Positions 24,963 to 33,126 of a DNA stretch of 64,000 bases are shown one piece after another. Within the stretch, counting starts at the first letter, position 1; each line of letters begins with the position of its first letter. The translations under genes and the position numbers were made by a program. The notes below the pieces were generated by a model. The model had not been told where the DNA came from and made no database searches. It saw only the letters and a program-made list of their open reading frames with translations. This DNA comes from Nitrospira sp. CR1.1 (GTDB lineage: Bacteria; Nitrospirota; Nitrospiria; Nitrospirales; Nitrospiraceae). Location of the stretch: NCBI GenBank assembly GCA_014055465.1, contig WIAF01000007.1, forward strand, positions 124,001 through 188,000, in the 5' to 3' direction.

Positions 24963-27900
24963 TCAAGGCGCGGCCGGCGCCGGCGCAGTCGGAACCTCCA
25001 CGGGCGGCGGCGCGGACGGCGGCGTCTGAATCTCCAATGACGGATCGAACAGCGGCTCCTTTTCCTCGTGCGGCGTGAGAATGTCAATCGGCAGCATGAC
25101 GGTATTCTTCAACAGATCGAAGGCAAGTTGCGCCACGCCGGTCAGGCCGGTGGTAAACGATTTCATTGGCAGGTAGGTCACCTGCGGATCGTCGATCGAC
25201 CCCTTCACCTGAAACAGGGCCGTGGCCAGCCCCTTGCGATCCCCCGCGACCAACCGCCCGAAGAGTGGAATGGATTTCAAGAACTGCGAATAGGACCCGA
25301 ACGGGCTCACGGCCCAGATCATGTCCAGTTGATCGGTGGGCATGTCGTAGGTGCCGACGGCCGAAATCTTCAGCACCGCGCTGTCCAGAATGATGTTCTG
25401 TGTTTTGACCAGCCCGTTTTGCACCGTGAGGGTGGCGCTCGCACGGTTGTACTGTAGGCCATCCTTTTCCAGGTCGACTTTGCCTTGCAACACGGCCGGC
25501 AGGTTCAGGATGGAGAGGATTTTCCAGATGGCGCGCTTCTCTGCTTTGAGAATGCGTCCGTCCTGCAGCACCAGTTCCACCTTGCCGTTGAGCGTCGGCA
25601 GCAGGCCATGAGGATTTCGTCCATGACCGCGCAGCGCGCCGGTGAGTTTCATGTCGCCGGTCACGGGCTGCTCGCGCGCGCCCAGCAACTGCAGCACGGT
25701 CTCGGCGGGGATGCCCGTCATACGGACCGACGTTTCTGTTTCGGCCGGTTCTCCTTTGGGAAGCCGCACGACCATCCGTCCCGCCGCATGCCCGGTTCCC
25801 GATTGCGCGACGACCCGGTCGAGATCCAGCATGCCGTCCTGTATGGTGAGCCGCCCCGAGAGCCCGCCGAACCGCAATTGTTTGTAGAGGCCCTTTTCAA
25901 TGGTGGCCGTGGCGCTGACCTGACTGGTCGAAGCCAGGGTTTCGAGAAATTCACGGATCGGCGAGCGGTGTCCTTTCGGGATCAGCAGATCCAGGTCCAT
26001 TTGCGCCGACTCGATTTTGACTGCGATCACCGGCTTGGTGGTCCAATTCTTCAGGGCGCCCGACAGGCTGACGTCGCTGTCTTTAATGCGGAACGACAGC
26101 TGCTTGATGTCGGCGATGTTTTTAGAAAACTTCAAGCGAAGATAGATGTCTTCCACCGCGCCATCCACGCCTTTGAGCGTCATCAGGCCGTTGGTCAGCG
26201 CCAGCCAGCCGCCGGTGCGCCAATTTTTCCACTCGGCATCCGAGCCCTTCACGTCCATGGAGACTTCGAGATTGCCGGCTTCAAACCCGCTGCGGTACAC
26301 CCAGTCCGGAAGGCTGGAGACCGACACGGTGCCAGTGGCCAGCGACGCGTCGATGGTGAACTGGTCGCCGAGGGTGATGCGGCCCTTCAACGGCAGGCGC
26401 AAGGGCGGCACGACGAGTTCGAGGCGCGAAATGACGAGGCCGATGCCTTTGGTCACGTCGGCGTCCAGTTCCAAGGAGGCCGGTGATCCCAGCGGTTTTT
26501 CGCCCAGCGTCGGGAGCACGAGTTTGGCTTCGTTCAGGCCGATCTCTCCGCGCAAGTGCGGCGCCCCGGACGGCCCCGAGAGCTGCACCCGGGCGTTGAC
26601 CATGCCGTAGAGCAGATCGTCCGGAAAGGTGCCCGCCGAGATCATCTGCCGCAGTTGCGAGGCGCTGCCCTTCGCGCGGATGACGAAATCTTGAAAGACG
26701 CTGGGCGTGCCTCCGCTGATCATGCCGTTGAATTGCAGCTGCGCCTCCCCCAGATTGGCCGTGACCTGGTCGAACTGCGCGCCGCCGGTTTGCGAGAAGA
26801 CGATACGGCCGTGCATGGCGGTGAGGCGTTGCGGCAGCGAAGGATTCATGAGACTGACCTGTTCGGCCAGCACCTCCCCGCCCGCAAAGGTAATGCCCTC
26901 GGGCTTGTCCAGCGGACCGACGAGGCGAAAGGTCGGATGGGTTTGTCCTTCGATGTCGCGCGACTGCGCGAGCAACGACGTCAGTTTGTCCGCGCGAATG
27001 GTCTTGGTCAAAAACTTGACCAGGTCGGCGGCGGTCATGTCGCCGCTCACATCCAATTCCATCCAGGGGCCCTCGTCCAGGAACGAGACGAGGGCTTTGC
27101 CGTCGGTGATCTGCAATGTGCCGTAGGCGCCCGTCACCTTGCCGACCCGGATTCGTCCCGGCTCCACCGAAACGGTGGCAGCCAGGTTCTGCGTCGGCAC
27201 ACGATCGTTGCCGATCAGGGCCATGCCCTTGTCGATCCGGAAATCACCCGTCAACGACAACTGCGGGCTGGGCGCCGTGGCGCCGGTCAAGGTGGCGGAG
27301 AGAATTTCAACGGTGCCTCCCAACTGGCGTTGCTCGACGATGGCCGGCAGTTGAGGGTGAATCCACTGCGCGGGAATCCTTGTAAAGAGCGACCGAAGAT
27401 CGATCGAGGGTGCGGCGAAGGTGATGGAAAAGGTGGGTTGCGACGTCAACAGCCCGGCCAGGTTGGCCTTGCCTGTCACCGCCAGTTCATCCACGTTCGC
27501 CGCAATCTCGGTCAGGACGACATCGTAACCGGCGACACCCGGCGCCACGCGAATGCGACTGTGCAGACTGGCGCCTCCTTGCAGTTGCGGAGGAACCGGC
27601 CGGGGCCCGAAGAAGTCGGCGGCTTCGCGCAGGCGAAGATTGGTCGTGTCAATCTCACCGTCGAATTGGAAGGCCGGGCGGACGGAGTAGGGTTCCTCGG
27701 CCGCCAGCGTGGATGACGATTCGCTCAGGCTGATCGTGCCGGTCAGCGAAAAGGAGGAGGGCGCGCCATTGGTCGGCAGCGCGGCGGAAATATGCAAGTC
27801 GCCTTGGCCTTTCCCCGGGTAGACTTTCAACGCCATCTCGACCGTTTCGAGCTGCGTGGTCCGGACGCCGTCCGGCCGCGCCTCGTCCGTCACCGTGATG

Positions 27901-28376
27901 TGGCCCTTCTGGATGGTGGCCTCACGGATCAGCAGGAGGCGGCTGAACATCTGGTAGGCCGACTCGTCCTTCGCCGCCGAGGGCAGGCCCGCCAACACAT
28001 TCCAATGTCCGGAGCGGTTTCGAACCAGCGTCACGGTGGGTTCGTTGAGAAAGATGCGTTTCGCGACAACCTGCTTCTTCAGCAGCGGCAGCAACCGCAG
28101 GACGATATCGATTTCCTTGGCGGAAAACACGACGTGCGTCGGATCATCATGGCCGTAAATGTCGACGTTGGTGAGTTCCAGGCGAAGGCTGGGCAGCACC
28201 ACGAGTTTGATGCGATCGACTTCGATTTTACGGCGAAGGCTGGTTTCGAGTTGCTGCAGGAAGAAGTTTTTGAGAATGTCGACGCCGAACAACTCGCGCG
28301 AATAGAAGAGGAGCAGAACCCCCGCGACCACCAGGCCGAGCAGCGACAGCACCACCGTGCGGGGACGAACCCTCAC
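24963..28376 (-). CDS. Large AsmA-like envelope protein
   Basis: 1137 residues. One N-terminal membrane anchor (VVLSLLGLVVAGVLLLFYSREL) is followed by an AsmA N-terminal domain (KIEVDRIKLVVLPSLRLELTNVDI), a long beta-rich middle and an AsmA-like C-terminal region (TGALRGHGRNPHGLLPTLNG, then the ISAVGTYDMPTDQLDM type). Such proteins bridge the envelope and are linked to lipid transport and outer-membrane homeostasis. The tail is Pro/Ala-rich. The start is GTG, with AGGAGG about 5 nt upstream; a repeat element ends right beside this ribosome site. Confidence 0.88.
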   Translation of the reverse strand: MRVRPRTVVLSLLGLVVAGVLLLFYSRELFGVDILKNFFLQQLETSLRRKIEVDRIKLVVLPSLRLELTNVDIYGHDDPTHVVFSAKEIDIVLRLLPLLKKQVVAKRIFLNEPTVTLVRNRSGHWNVLAGLPSAAKDESAYQMFSRLLLIREATIQKGHITVTDEARPDGVRTTQLETVEMALKVYPGKGQGDLHISAALPTNGAPSSFSLTGTISLSESSSTLAAEEPYSVRPAFQFDGEIDTTNLRLREAADFFGPRPVPPQLQGGASLHSRIRVAPGVAGYDVVLTEIAANVDELAVTGKANLAGLLTSQPTFSITFAAPSIDLRSLFTRIPAQWIHPQLPAIVEQRQLGGTVEILSATLTGATAPSPQLSLTGDFRIDKGMALIGNDRVPTQNLAATVSVEPGRIRVGKVTGAYGTLQITDGKALVSFLDEGPWMELDVSGDMTAADLVKFLTKTIRADKLTSLLAQSRDIEGQTHPTFRLVGPLDKPEGITFAGGEVLAEQVSLMNPSLPQRLTAMHGRIVFSQTGGAQFDQVTANLGEAQLQFNGMISGGTPSVFQDFVIRAKGSASQLRQMISAGTFPDDLLYGMVNARVQLSGPSGAPHLRGEIGLNEAKLVLPTLGEKPLGSPASLELDADVTKGIGLVISRLELVVPPLRLPLKGRITLGDQFTIDASLATGTVSVSSLPDWVYRSGFEAGNLEVSMDVKGSDAEWKNWRTGGWLALTNGLMTLKGVDGAVEDIYLRLKFSKNIADIKQLSFRIKDSDVSLSGALKNWTTKPVIAVKIESAQMDLDLLIPKGHRSPIREFLETLASTSQVSATATIEKGLYKQLRFGGLSGRLTIQDGMLDLDRVVAQSGTGHAAGRMVVRLPKGEPAETETSVRMTGIPAETVLQLLGAREQPVTGDMKLTGALRGHGRNPHGLLPTLNGKVELVLQDGRILKAEKRAIWKILSILNLPAVLQGKVDLEKDGLQYNRASATLTVQNGLVKTQNIILDSAVLKISAVGTYDMPTDQLDMIWAVSPFGSYSQFLKSIPLFGRLVAGDRKGLATALFQVKGSIDDPQVTYLPMKSFTTGLTGVAQLAFDLLKNTVMLPIDILTPHEEKEPLFDPSLEIQTPPSAPPPVEVPTAPAPAAP

Positions 28377-30173: not shown

Positions 30174-31148
30174 TCAGACCGGCAAATCCAATCGCTCCCA
30201 ACGGATGGTCAGTGATGGTCGATCTATTGAGAAGTATATGGATTCGGCCTTACCGAGAACCTTGTCTTTGGCGACATAGCCCCAGAATCTGCTATCCAGG
30301 CTGCTCTCACGATTGTCACCCAGCACAAAGTATGCGTTGGGCGGAACAGTCGCGGCATGCAAATTATCTCGAGGGTTGTCCGCCAGAATGTTGTTATCGG
30401 TATGCTGAATGTACCTCTCGGCAAAAGGGACACCATTCAAATACATCGATTGATTGCGCAGCTCCACGATGTCACCAGGAAGTCCGACGATTCGTTTGAC
30501 GAAGAGTTTTGATTCGTCCTCAGGATATCTAAACACGATGACGTCACCACGCTGTGGCGTGGTATCCGAATAGGCTCGTTTGTTGACAAGGACATGGTCC
30601 CCCGGCATCAAAGTGGGGAGCATGGCTCCGCTTGGAATGTGAAAGCTTTGCGACCAGGATCGGGCCTCAGTCGTCAGGTCTTGACCAGCCTTCTCCCAGA
30701 ATATTAAACGAGCGGTGTGCAATCTCGCCTTTTCTGGTCGATCCCTTACGTCATGATAGCGGTCGATGATCTTCTGCGCGTCATTTCTGCTGAAGGACGA
30801 TTCATAGTGTGTGGCTAATCGAGTCTCCAAGAAGCCTGACGGCGCCAGATCGACCAACATGTATTTGATCGCCTTCAGCAAGGATTGCTTGATGCGTTTG
30901 AGTTCGAGAGTGGTCAACGTGTTCGCGAGGCCCGCTTTTATTTGCAGCATCGTGCTGAGGTCCGCGACGTCGATTGAGTTGTCGAGAGCCTCCGTCAGCG
31001 CTCCACTCGCAAGGTCGCGTCGAGCCAATTCGTGAAACACCTCCGATACACGATCCGGTATAGCAGTGACTGTATCTGTGCGGCCGTACGCCTCAGGCAC
31101 AAGGACGGTATCGGCATGAATCGAAAACGTGAATGCCAAGGTCATCAT
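30174..31148 (-). CDS. Signal peptidase I-like protein lacking the nucleophile Ser
   Basis: 324 residues. The C-terminal half is an S26 signal peptidase: the box B-like HIPSGAMLPTLMPGDHVLVNK, RGDVIVFRYP, LFVKRIVGLPGD with the catalytic-base Lys, and GDNRESSLDSRFWG. In LepB the nucleophile is the Ser before Met (SGSM); here that codon (30626-30624) is GCC, Ala. The first 165 residues are a helical region not seen in normal LepB, preceded by a signal-like segment. An AAGGAGG sits 5 nt before an in-frame CTG at 31172, a possible start 8 codons upstream. Confidence 0.8.
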   Translation of the reverse strand: MMTLAFTFSIHADTVLVPEAYGRTDTVTAIPDRVSEVFHELARRDLASGALTEALDNSIDVADLSTMLQIKAGLANTLTTLELKRIKQSLLKAIKYMLVDLAPSGFLETRLATHYESSFSRNDAQKIIDRYHDVRDRPEKARLHTARLIFWEKAGQDLTTEARSWSQSFHIPSGAMLPTLMPGDHVLVNKRAYSDTTPQRGDVIVFRYPEDESKLFVKRIVGLPGDIVELRNQSMYLNGVPFAERYIQHTDNNILADNPRDNLHAATVPPNAYFVLGDNRESSLDSRFWGYVAKDKVLGKAESIYFSIDRPSLTIRWERLDLPV

Positions 31149-31252
31149 GGCGGAAAGTTGTAACGATCCCAGAGTGCCCTCCTTGTCTGTTCACCTAGGG
31201 TCAGCGTAGCCGCTGATCGTGACATGTGTGATCACGAAAGGAAAAATAGTCG

Positions 31253-31311: not shown

Positions 31312-32841
31312 TCACGCCCGATTCACTTCGGCCGGTTGCGGCACGCCGGACGAATCCAATTGGTAAGCGTAGGCTTCTTTCATTTGCACGTTGCCGCTGT
31401 CGGTGTAGACGAACAGGCGGTGGCCGTCGGTGCGGGTTTTGACGAGGCCATAGGCCGTGCGGCTGAAGCCATAGAAGGGCCCGCGTTTCTTGGCGGCATT
31501 GTCATCCTTGAGGCGGCAAGGGCCTTCGGTTTGGAAAAAGGCCACCAGTTCGGTGACGAAGATGAGCGGCTCCGGCACGCGCGACCATTTGCCCAGGGCA
31601 CCCATGAGGGTGGCGCGGGGATGGATGTATTCTTTGCGCGCGTTTTCGTCGCCGCTGGAGACCACGCTCACGATGGGCGACACGGCCTGAATGAATGCGC
31701 CGGAAAAATCGGCCGAGCCATGGTGCGGCACCTTGAAGACTTCGGATCGCAGATTGAGCGTACCCTTGTTGTGTTCGCGGGCGAGGAAGCGGCTGGCCTC
31801 GTCGTTCAGATCGCCCGAAAAGAGAAAACTGAACCCGCCGTAACTCAACCGGAGCACAATCGAATGACCGTTGATGGTATGGGAGGCGGAATGGCCGGTG
31901 AAGCCTTCATCGCTGTCGTTGAACGAGTCATGGCCGATGCGCGGTCCCTTTGGTGGCTCACCGAGAAAACGCAGTGCCGGTTGTCCTTCCACCTGTGTGG
32001 TGATCGGGCCCAACACCTCGATATGCATGTCGGTTCGATTGAAAAACTCAAAGGCCTGGTTGTCGCCGAGTTGCAGGCGGCGGAAACTGACCGGGCTGCG
32101 GCTGTTGTAGGTGGCGAGGGTCTGTTTCCATTCCCTGAACGGCTCGTTCATCTGGTTGTCGTCCACGTCGAGCAGATTCTCTTCAAGGCCGGTGAGGTAC
32201 AGTTGCCCGTCCACCGTCTTGGCCGGCCCGAGGAGTTTGGTATCCGGCACGTTTTTATTGTTCATTCTGGACGGACGTTTGACGAGGCCGTTGTGATAGA
32301 CGCGCTGCGGTTGCATGAAGAGCTGTTTGCGTTTGACCTTGTTGGTCTCAGATTTGAGGATCTCCGTGAGGCCAGCGAAGTGGTCCGCGTCGCCGTGGGT
32401 GACGACAATGCAGTCGATCTGCTTCGGGTGGTCGGCGCTGGTATTGCGGAAGCGCCCGGCGAGATAACGCGCGAACATCTGGTTGTCGCCCCCGTCGATG
32501 AGGAGGACTTTGCCGTCCGGCGATTCGATGACCATGCCGTCGCCCTGTTGGACATCGACGAAGTTGACCTTCAGCACCTTGTTGTCGGCGACAGGACGGA
32601 CCAGATCGGCCACCTTGATGCCGGAGGATTTGGTCGGTTCAATGTAGCCGGTGACGGATTCGGGAAGGATGCTGCCGTCGGGTTTTTCGCGAAAGACGGT
32701 GATGCTGACCTCGAGGTACGTCGCTGTCTGCTTCACCACGGTGATGTCGTCGCCCCAGGCGATCGTGCGAATGTACTGTTTGCGGCCCCGCTCTTCCCAC
32801 ACATCGGCAAGATCGACATTGAGCACGGCTTGATCTGGCAT
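31312..32841 (-). CDS. ComEC-like metallo-beta-lactamase-fold hydrolase, no membrane domain
   Basis: 509 residues from the ATG giving MPDQAVLNVDLADVW, with GGAAGG upstream. After an N-terminal domain of about 85 residues comes the metallo-beta-lactamase fold: VNFVDVQQGDGMVI and VLLIDGGDN, the metal motif THGDADHFAGL, FLFSGDLNDEAS and VFKVPHHGSADFSGAF. This order matches the C-terminal domain of ComEC, but no transmembrane competence domain is present and there is no signal peptide. Substrate unknown, perhaps nucleic acid or a phosphodiester. The C-terminal third (FYGFSRTAYGLVKTRTDGHR) is unassigned. Confidence 0.8.
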   Translation of the reverse strand: MPDQAVLNVDLADVWEERGRKQYIRTIAWGDDITVVKQTATYLEVSITVFREKPDGSILPESVTGYIEPTKSSGIKVADLVRPVADNKVLKVNFVDVQQGDGMVIESPDGKVLLIDGGDNQMFARYLAGRFRNTSADHPKQIDCIVVTHGDADHFAGLTEILKSETNKVKRKQLFMQPQRVYHNGLVKRPSRMNNKNVPDTKLLGPAKTVDGQLYLTGLEENLLDVDDNQMNEPFREWKQTLATYNSRSPVSFRRLQLGDNQAFEFFNRTDMHIEVLGPITTQVEGQPALRFLGEPPKGPRIGHDSFNDSDEGFTGHSASHTINGHSIVLRLSYGGFSFLFSGDLNDEASRFLAREHNKGTLNLRSEVFKVPHHGSADFSGAFIQAVSPIVSVVSSGDENARKEYIHPRATLMGALGKWSRVPEPLIFVTELVAFFQTEGPCRLKDDNAAKKRGPFYGFSRTAYGLVKTRTDGHRLFVYTDSGNVQMKEAYAYQLDSSGVPQPAEVNRA

Positions 32842-32860
32842 CGCATCTTCCTTCCCCGTC

Positions 32861-32982
32861 AGGCTGTTGGAATGACCTCCGGCGGCGTGCTCGGTCGCTC
32901 CTCTCCCAGCGACGTACCGCAAGGGTGCGTCGCAGTCGCCGATCTTCTTGCGGCCTTGCCGGACCGTCACTCTGAGCAGTCT
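32861..32982. repeat. Dispersed element, degenerate copy 2
   Basis: About 122 bp between the metallo-beta-lactamase gene and the cyclophilin gene. It has the family order AGGCTG ... CTCGGTCGCTC ... CGACGTACC ... CTTGCGGCCTTGCCGGAC ... AGCAGTCT, with imperfect ends. The rest of the gap (32983-33126) shows nothing I can name. Confidence 0.5.
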
Positions 32983-33126
32983 GCACACATTGTGGCGGCC
33001 GGTTTCACGCCATTGCCCTCTTAACGGTGACCCGACGATTTCGGCGACAGAATACGCCGTTCATCGGGAGAAATCACGCGATCCGCCCCCTTGCCGATGG
33101 AATCTCCCGCCTGGTACATTTGCGCC

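What the first reader, a model, noticed from the sequence alone, without database searches (positions are those of the whole stretch)
30174..31172. Signal-peptidase-like protein with Ala at the nucleophile and a long new N-terminal domain
The Ser that attacks the peptide in LepB, in SGSM, is Ala here (SGAM; codon 30626-30624), while the base Lys and the other boxes remain. The first 165 residues are not LepB-like and follow a secretion signal rather than a membrane anchor. It may be an inactive relative that binds signal peptides, or the Ser two positions earlier may serve.
Basis: partly seen in the sequence, partly recalled or inferred. Interest (0 to 1): 0.55.

Follow-up and report, generated by a model that had tools for sequence, protein, structure and literature searches.

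The report
Dead signal peptidase with new domain
A bacterium carries, beside its normal signal peptidase, an exported look-alike whose cutting residue has been lost; relatives keep the fold but not the cutting pair, so it probably holds proteins or peptides instead of cutting them.

Summary
The ORF 31172-30174 (-) is a peptidase-S26 (LepB) homologue whose nucleophile codon 30626-30624 is Ala (IPSGAM), with Lys226 and the GDNR box kept, behind a ~130-aa helical domain that no Pfam family matches. It is not a recent point mutation. The same two-domain protein occurs in 48 of 175 genomes of the taxonomic family (4 in this genus, 43 in a second, 1 in a third) and in no other genus among 395 sampled genomes of the phylum. 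Across 49 gene copies (48 readable), the nucleophile is Ala 36, Ser 7, Thr 3, Gly 2 and the base His 39, Lys 5, Gln 3, Leu 1; none has Ser+Lys, whereas 105 of 105 ordinary LepBs do. The Ser copies are nested late in the tree, with His or Leu for Lys. The upstream Ser is not conserved. A normal lepB (SGSM) lies 44 kb away. dN/dS is about 0.2. Second-genus members are predicted lipoproteins. Best reading: a lineage-specific exported pseudo-signal-peptidase that works by binding, like streptococcal SipA. Its partner is unknown; a MHYT-PAS-SpoIIE-STAS regulator gene is next door in 33 of 33 second-genus loci examined, but not in this genome.

The parts
30174..31172 (-). whole pseudo-signal-peptidase gene; CTG start 31172-31170 (alternative ATG 31148-31146), stop ends at 30174
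31178..31183 (-). AGGAGG, candidate ribosome-binding site 5 nt before the CTG
   Evidence: sequence; inference
31056..31172 (-). N-terminal hydrophobic export signal (residues 1-39), poorly defined; a lipobox in second-genus homologues, none here
30654..31046 (-). N-terminal helical domain (residues 43-173), no Pfam match, found only with this S26-like domain
   Evidence: helices predicted at low confidence
30186..30653 (-). peptidase S26 (LepB-like) domain (residues 174-329)
30630..30632 (-). Ser181, the upstream Ser proposed as alternative nucleophile; Ile in orthologue G008, His/Asn in most second-genus members
30624..30626 (-). Ala183 (GCC) at the nucleophile position
30495..30497 (-). Lys226 (AAA) at the general-base position; His in most homologues
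30279..30320 (-). GDNRESSLDSRFWG box (residues 285-298); G, D, N, R, S, D, S, R, G identical in 47 of 47 family rows

Best explanation
The gene encodes a non-catalytic paralogue of signal peptidase I (a pseudopeptidase). It is exported (released or loosely anchored here; lipid-anchored in a second genus) and carries a private helical domain in front of a retained S26 fold. An ancestor lost the nucleophile Ser, at the latest at the base of this family, and the base Lys later drifted to His, Gln or Leu in part of it. The domain now most likely works by binding a peptide segment or partner protein in or near the old cleft, as an assembly or holding factor in the cell envelope, in the manner proposed for streptococcal SipA. 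The ordinary lepB of the same genome does the cutting. Shown: domain make-up, loss of the dyad, conservation of the other boxes, purifying selection, normal lepB present. Inferred: export, absence of activity, the binding function. Unknown: the partner.
For: Canonical lepB with SGSM and Lys in the same genome (G000:C7:109568-110140). Of 12 family-bearing genomes scanned with PF10502, 11 also hold an intact SGSM/Lys LepB; the miss, G013, is 90% complete. Dyad: 0 of 48 readable copies have Ser+Lys, against 105 of 105 distinct LepBs with both. Tree without the two catalytic columns: the 47 family rows form one side of a branch (SH-aLRT 87); basal rows are Gly/Lys, Gly/Gln and Ala/Lys; the 7 Ser rows form a late nested group with His or Leu. 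Other boxes kept in 47 of 47 rows: GD (191-192), P217, R227, N246, RD, GDNR, S291, D293, SR. Median dN/dS 0.20 over 293 non-independent pairs. Model of the S26 part (pLDDT block means 81-93 over residues 191-250) matches LepB and SipA; target-normalised TM 0.71-0.76 with SipA 4n31.
Against: No activity or binding was measured. Six Ser/His copies could be active with a Ser-His dyad as in ER-type signal peptidases (recalled). His is kept in 39 of 48 copies and Ser291 in 47 of 47 rows, more constraint than free decay of an active site would suggest, so altered chemistry is not excluded. Residues of the substrate-binding strand are changed in the second genus (P to S, S to N/H, G to E), which argues against the same ligand as LepB. 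No partner linked across the whole family was found.
Confidence: 0.68

Rival explanations
1. It is still a protease using other residues: the upstream Ser181, the conserved Ser291 (E. coli Ser278), or His at the Lys position.
For: Lys kept in this genus (4 of 4) and His in 39 of 48 copies; Ser291 in 47 of 47 rows. Seven copies regained Ser beside His or Leu.
Against: Ser181 is Ile in G008 and His/Asn in most second-genus rows. Ser291 is also invariant in ordinary LepBs, where Ser278 stabilises the Lys (PMC4049620, passages). No Cys is invariant or nearly so in the 17-row alignment.
Confidence: 0.12
2. Periplasmic regulatory lipoprotein for the neighbouring MHYT-PAS-SpoIIE-HATPase-STAS phosphatase (partner-switching signalling) in the second genus, with a changed role here.
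For: SpoIIE-type gene downstream on the same strand in 33 of 33 second-genus loci examined, open frames within 250 bp in 29; all 43 second-genus genomes with the family have that gene.
Against: 12 second-genus genomes have the SpoIIE gene without the family gene, with no remnant found beside it in the 9 fetched. No such gene passed 1e-100 in this genus. Synteny within a genus can be mere common descent.
Confidence: 0.12
3. Decaying gene or a one-off point mutation of an active enzyme.
For: Two of 49 copies are incomplete (one split by a frameshift, one cut at a contig end); start codon unusual here.
Against: Ala in all four copies of the genus, no Ser+Lys copy, dN/dS about 0.2, intact S26 and N-terminal frames in 47 of 49 copies.
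Confidence: 0.03

Closest known systems
Signal peptidase I, LepB (Pfam PF10502, TIGR02227)
   Same: Same fold and boxes; profile matches 1.8e-44 and 9e-46; best structural matches are E. coli LepB structures.
   Different: Nucleophile Ser lost; Lys lost in most of the family; no transmembrane helix directly before the domain; extra helical domain.
Streptococcus pyogenes SipA (pilus assembly factor, PDB 4n31, 4k8w)
   Same: SPase fold without Ser-Lys dyad (Asp and Gly there), peptide-binding cleft kept, no activity, essential for pilus polymerisation (PMC4049620, passages); found by sequence and fold searches here.
   Different: Different substitutions, no N-terminal helical domain, Gram-positive pilus cluster; no pilin or sortase among the 9 neighbour proteins scanned with Pfam.
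Staphylococcus aureus SpsA
   Same: Inactive SPase-I homologue lacking two catalytic residues beside an active SpsB (PMC12445088, passages).
   Different: No extra domain, not lipidated (recalled); not compared by sequence here.
ER-type (Ser-His) signal peptidases such as SipW, SEC11
   Same: His at the base position in 39 of 48 copies (ER-type motif recalled).
   Different: Nucleophile Ser absent in most; boxes otherwise LepB-type; only weak structural match to the human complex (E 1.3e-3).

Membership tests
Peptidase S26 domain family (homology) | Significant match to the family profile | tested here: met
   PF10502 1.8e-44, TIGR02227 9e-46
Active signal peptidase I | Ser nucleophile in SxSM | tested here: not met
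   Ala183 here; Ala 36, Ser 7, Thr 3, Gly 2 of 48
Active signal peptidase I | Lys general base | tested here: met
   Lys226 here and Lys in 5 of 48 copies in all; His/Gln/Leu in the other 43
Active signal peptidase I | Ser and Lys together | tested here: not met
   0 of 48
Active signal peptidase I | GDNR...S.DSR box | tested here: met
   47 of 47 rows
Active signal peptidase I | Transmembrane helix directly before the catalytic domain | tested here: not met
   130-residue domain intervenes; lipobox in second-genus rows
Active signal peptidase I | Cleaves preproteins | not testable with these tools
   needs biochemistry
SipA-like pilus assembly factor | SPase fold without dyad | tested here: met
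SipA-like pilus assembly factor | Lies in a sortase/pilin cluster | tested here: not met
   Neighbours scanned: MBL-fold, MFS, AsmA/YhdP here; second genus HflX, SpoIIE-type, STAS, Zn_peptidase_2, OMP
ER-type Ser-His signal peptidase | Ser plus His dyad | tested here: not met
   Ala/Lys here; Ser/His in 6 of 48 copies

The most novel reading that the evidence does not exclude
A signal-peptidase fold was turned into a periplasmic binding or sensing lipoprotein of diderm bacteria, with its own new domain, that reports an envelope peptide or misprocessed precursor to a membrane MHYT-SpoIIE partner-switching phosphatase encoded next door; catalysis was lost first at Ser and then at Lys.
Probability: 0.12. 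Interest if true: 0.75.

Novelty: new variant of a known kind. Interest (0 to 1): 0.5.

Why it matters
The inactive signal-peptidase homologues described in the papers seen here are Gram-positive (SipA, SpsA). This family looks like a conserved, partly lipid-anchored case in what appear to be diderm bacteria, with an added domain and a readable order of loss (Ser first, Lys later, Ser regained without Lys in one group), so it is a natural series for asking what the S26 fold does without catalysis. It also warns that profile-based annotation names these proteins 'signal peptidase I'.

Tried and rejected
Point mutation or sequencing error: rejected, Ala in all four copies of the genus. Upstream Ser as nucleophile: rejected, not conserved. 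N-terminal domain as DUF2059: my recollection of a helical pattern only; Pfam gave no hit, and PF09832 found nothing in 41 genomes, although its control rang in only 1 of 14 genomes, so the test is weak. Wider SGAM occurrence: 5 of 295 phylum genomes carry the exact DNA pattern; two are the family (own, G009), the other three (G012, G052, G304) sit in short unrelated frames. The search for related loci in genome contigs returned 80 ordinary LepB-type loci and no family member; a regex read SGSM in 62 of 80, the other 18 escaped the regex, and the later profile-based set of 105 distinct proteins from 107 loci showed Ser and Lys throughout. Plasmid collection: no match to the N-terminal domain. 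Structure of the N-terminal domain alone: mean pLDDT 50, not used for a fold search. Literature: searches in the held open-access library listed no paper that I could recognise from title and abstract start as being on this family; most subscription papers are not held.

Full report
Observation. The ORF is real and as described. Translation of 31172-30174 (-) gives 332 residues with Ala183 at codon 30626-30624, Lys226 and the GDNR box. The S26 domain is matched at 1.8e-44 by Pfam and 9e-46 by TIGR02227, and the first ~170 residues by nothing. The region before the domain aligns poorly with that of the closest orthologue.

A normal lepB exists. PF10502 finds three S26 genes in the genome: a canonical LepB at C7:109568-110140 with IPSGSM and a Lys, about 44 kb from this gene and outside the window, this gene, and a more distant one on C15. 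Of 12 family-bearing genomes scanned, 11 hold an intact SGSM/Lys copy; G013 (90% complete) shows only the family gene.

Orthologues at the codon. In 61 genomes (own and relatives) the whole protein is found in 4, all in the genus (4 of 29). They read SGAM, SGAM, SGAM and IGAM, so the upstream Ser is also gone in one. A profile of the N-terminal domain then found a much larger set: 48 of 175 genomes of the taxonomic family, namely 4 in this genus, 43 in a second genus (code g6) and 1 in a third (g21). With the widened profile, 35 of 395 phylum genomes have it, all in the first two genera. In the fetched loci the domain was always joined to an S26-like domain, except in the cut or split copies.

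Active site across the family. The 49 copies give 50 aligned rows, one gene being split. Readable at the nucleophile are 48: Ala 36, Ser 7, Thr 3, Gly 2. Readable at the base are 48: His 39, Lys 5, Gln 3, Leu 1. No copy pairs Ser with Lys. In 105 distinct ordinary LepBs both are universal. Among positions at 95% or more in those LepBs, the family keeps the GD, RD, GDNR, Ser278-type and DSR positions in 47 of 47 rows, but loses the dyad, the Asp three residues before the Lys, and in the second genus most of the substrate-strand motif IPSG. Ala codons vary (GCG 30, GCC 5, GCT 1).

History. A quick tree of 47 family and 53 of the 105 LepB rows, built without the two catalytic columns, sets the family on one side of a branch (SH-aLRT 87, not starred). 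Gly/Lys and Gly/Gln copies are basal, then Ala/Lys (this genus) and Ala/His (second genus). The seven Ser copies lie deep inside the Ala/His group. The tree is a short search with long basal branches and an inferred root, so the order Ser first, Lys later is likely, not proven. Median dN/dS is 0.20 over 293 overlapping pairs, at most 0.47.

Export. A lipobox (pattern recalled from PROSITE) precedes the domain in 42 of 50 rows; those without it are the four of this genus, L170, L171 and two truncated rows. The copies in this genus have a hydrophobic start without a lipobox.

Structure. A model of the window protein aligned with 34 LepB segments is confident over most of the S26 part (block means 81-93 over residues 191-250, 63-93 after that) and poor for the N-terminal domain. 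Foldseek lists E. coli LepB first; S. pyogenes SipA has the higher target-normalised TM, 0.71-0.76. The N-terminal domain alone gives pLDDT 50, all helical.

Neighbours. Here the gene lies between a metallo-beta-lactamase-fold protein and a convergent MFS transporter, an order shared with G013. In G009 and G008 an HflX GTPase follows. In the second genus, a MHYT-PAS-SpoIIE-HATPase-STAS gene follows on the same strand in 33 of 33 loci examined, out of 43 genomes; the other 10 were held only as short or contig-ended stretches and were left out of the count. All 43 genomes have that gene, but 12 others have it without the family gene, and the 9 of those 12 that I fetched show no remnant beside it.

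Interpretation. A protein without the nucleophile, under purifying selection, beside a working-type LepB, and set far from the membrane, is best read as a binding pseudoenzyme. SipA is the tested precedent (PMC4049620, passages read; discussed also in PMC12984324, passages), and SpsA is an inactive staphylococcal paralogue (PMC12445088, passages). What is new is the added domain, the lipid anchor, the likely diderm setting and the graded loss of the dyad.

Noticed in passing
window 31312-32988 (-): Metallo-beta-lactamase-fold protein upstream of the gene, order shared with genome G013.
   Followed up: partly
L235 (genome G228:C40:279797-280252): A second intact LepB paralogue (AGSM, Lys) with hydrophobic segments in front; its relation to this family was not tested.
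   Followed up: no
L170 (genome G126:C20): Divergent second family copy in a genome that also has a standard one; Gly/Gln at the dyad, no lipobox.
   Followed up: partly
genomes G302, G368, G354, G266, G348 and others: The SpoIIE-type gene is matched only to about residue 820 of 965, or has in-frame stops, in several genomes; perhaps the STAS part is a separate gene there.
   Followed up: no
window 24963-28376 (-): AsmA/YhdP-family envelope protein.
   Followed up: no
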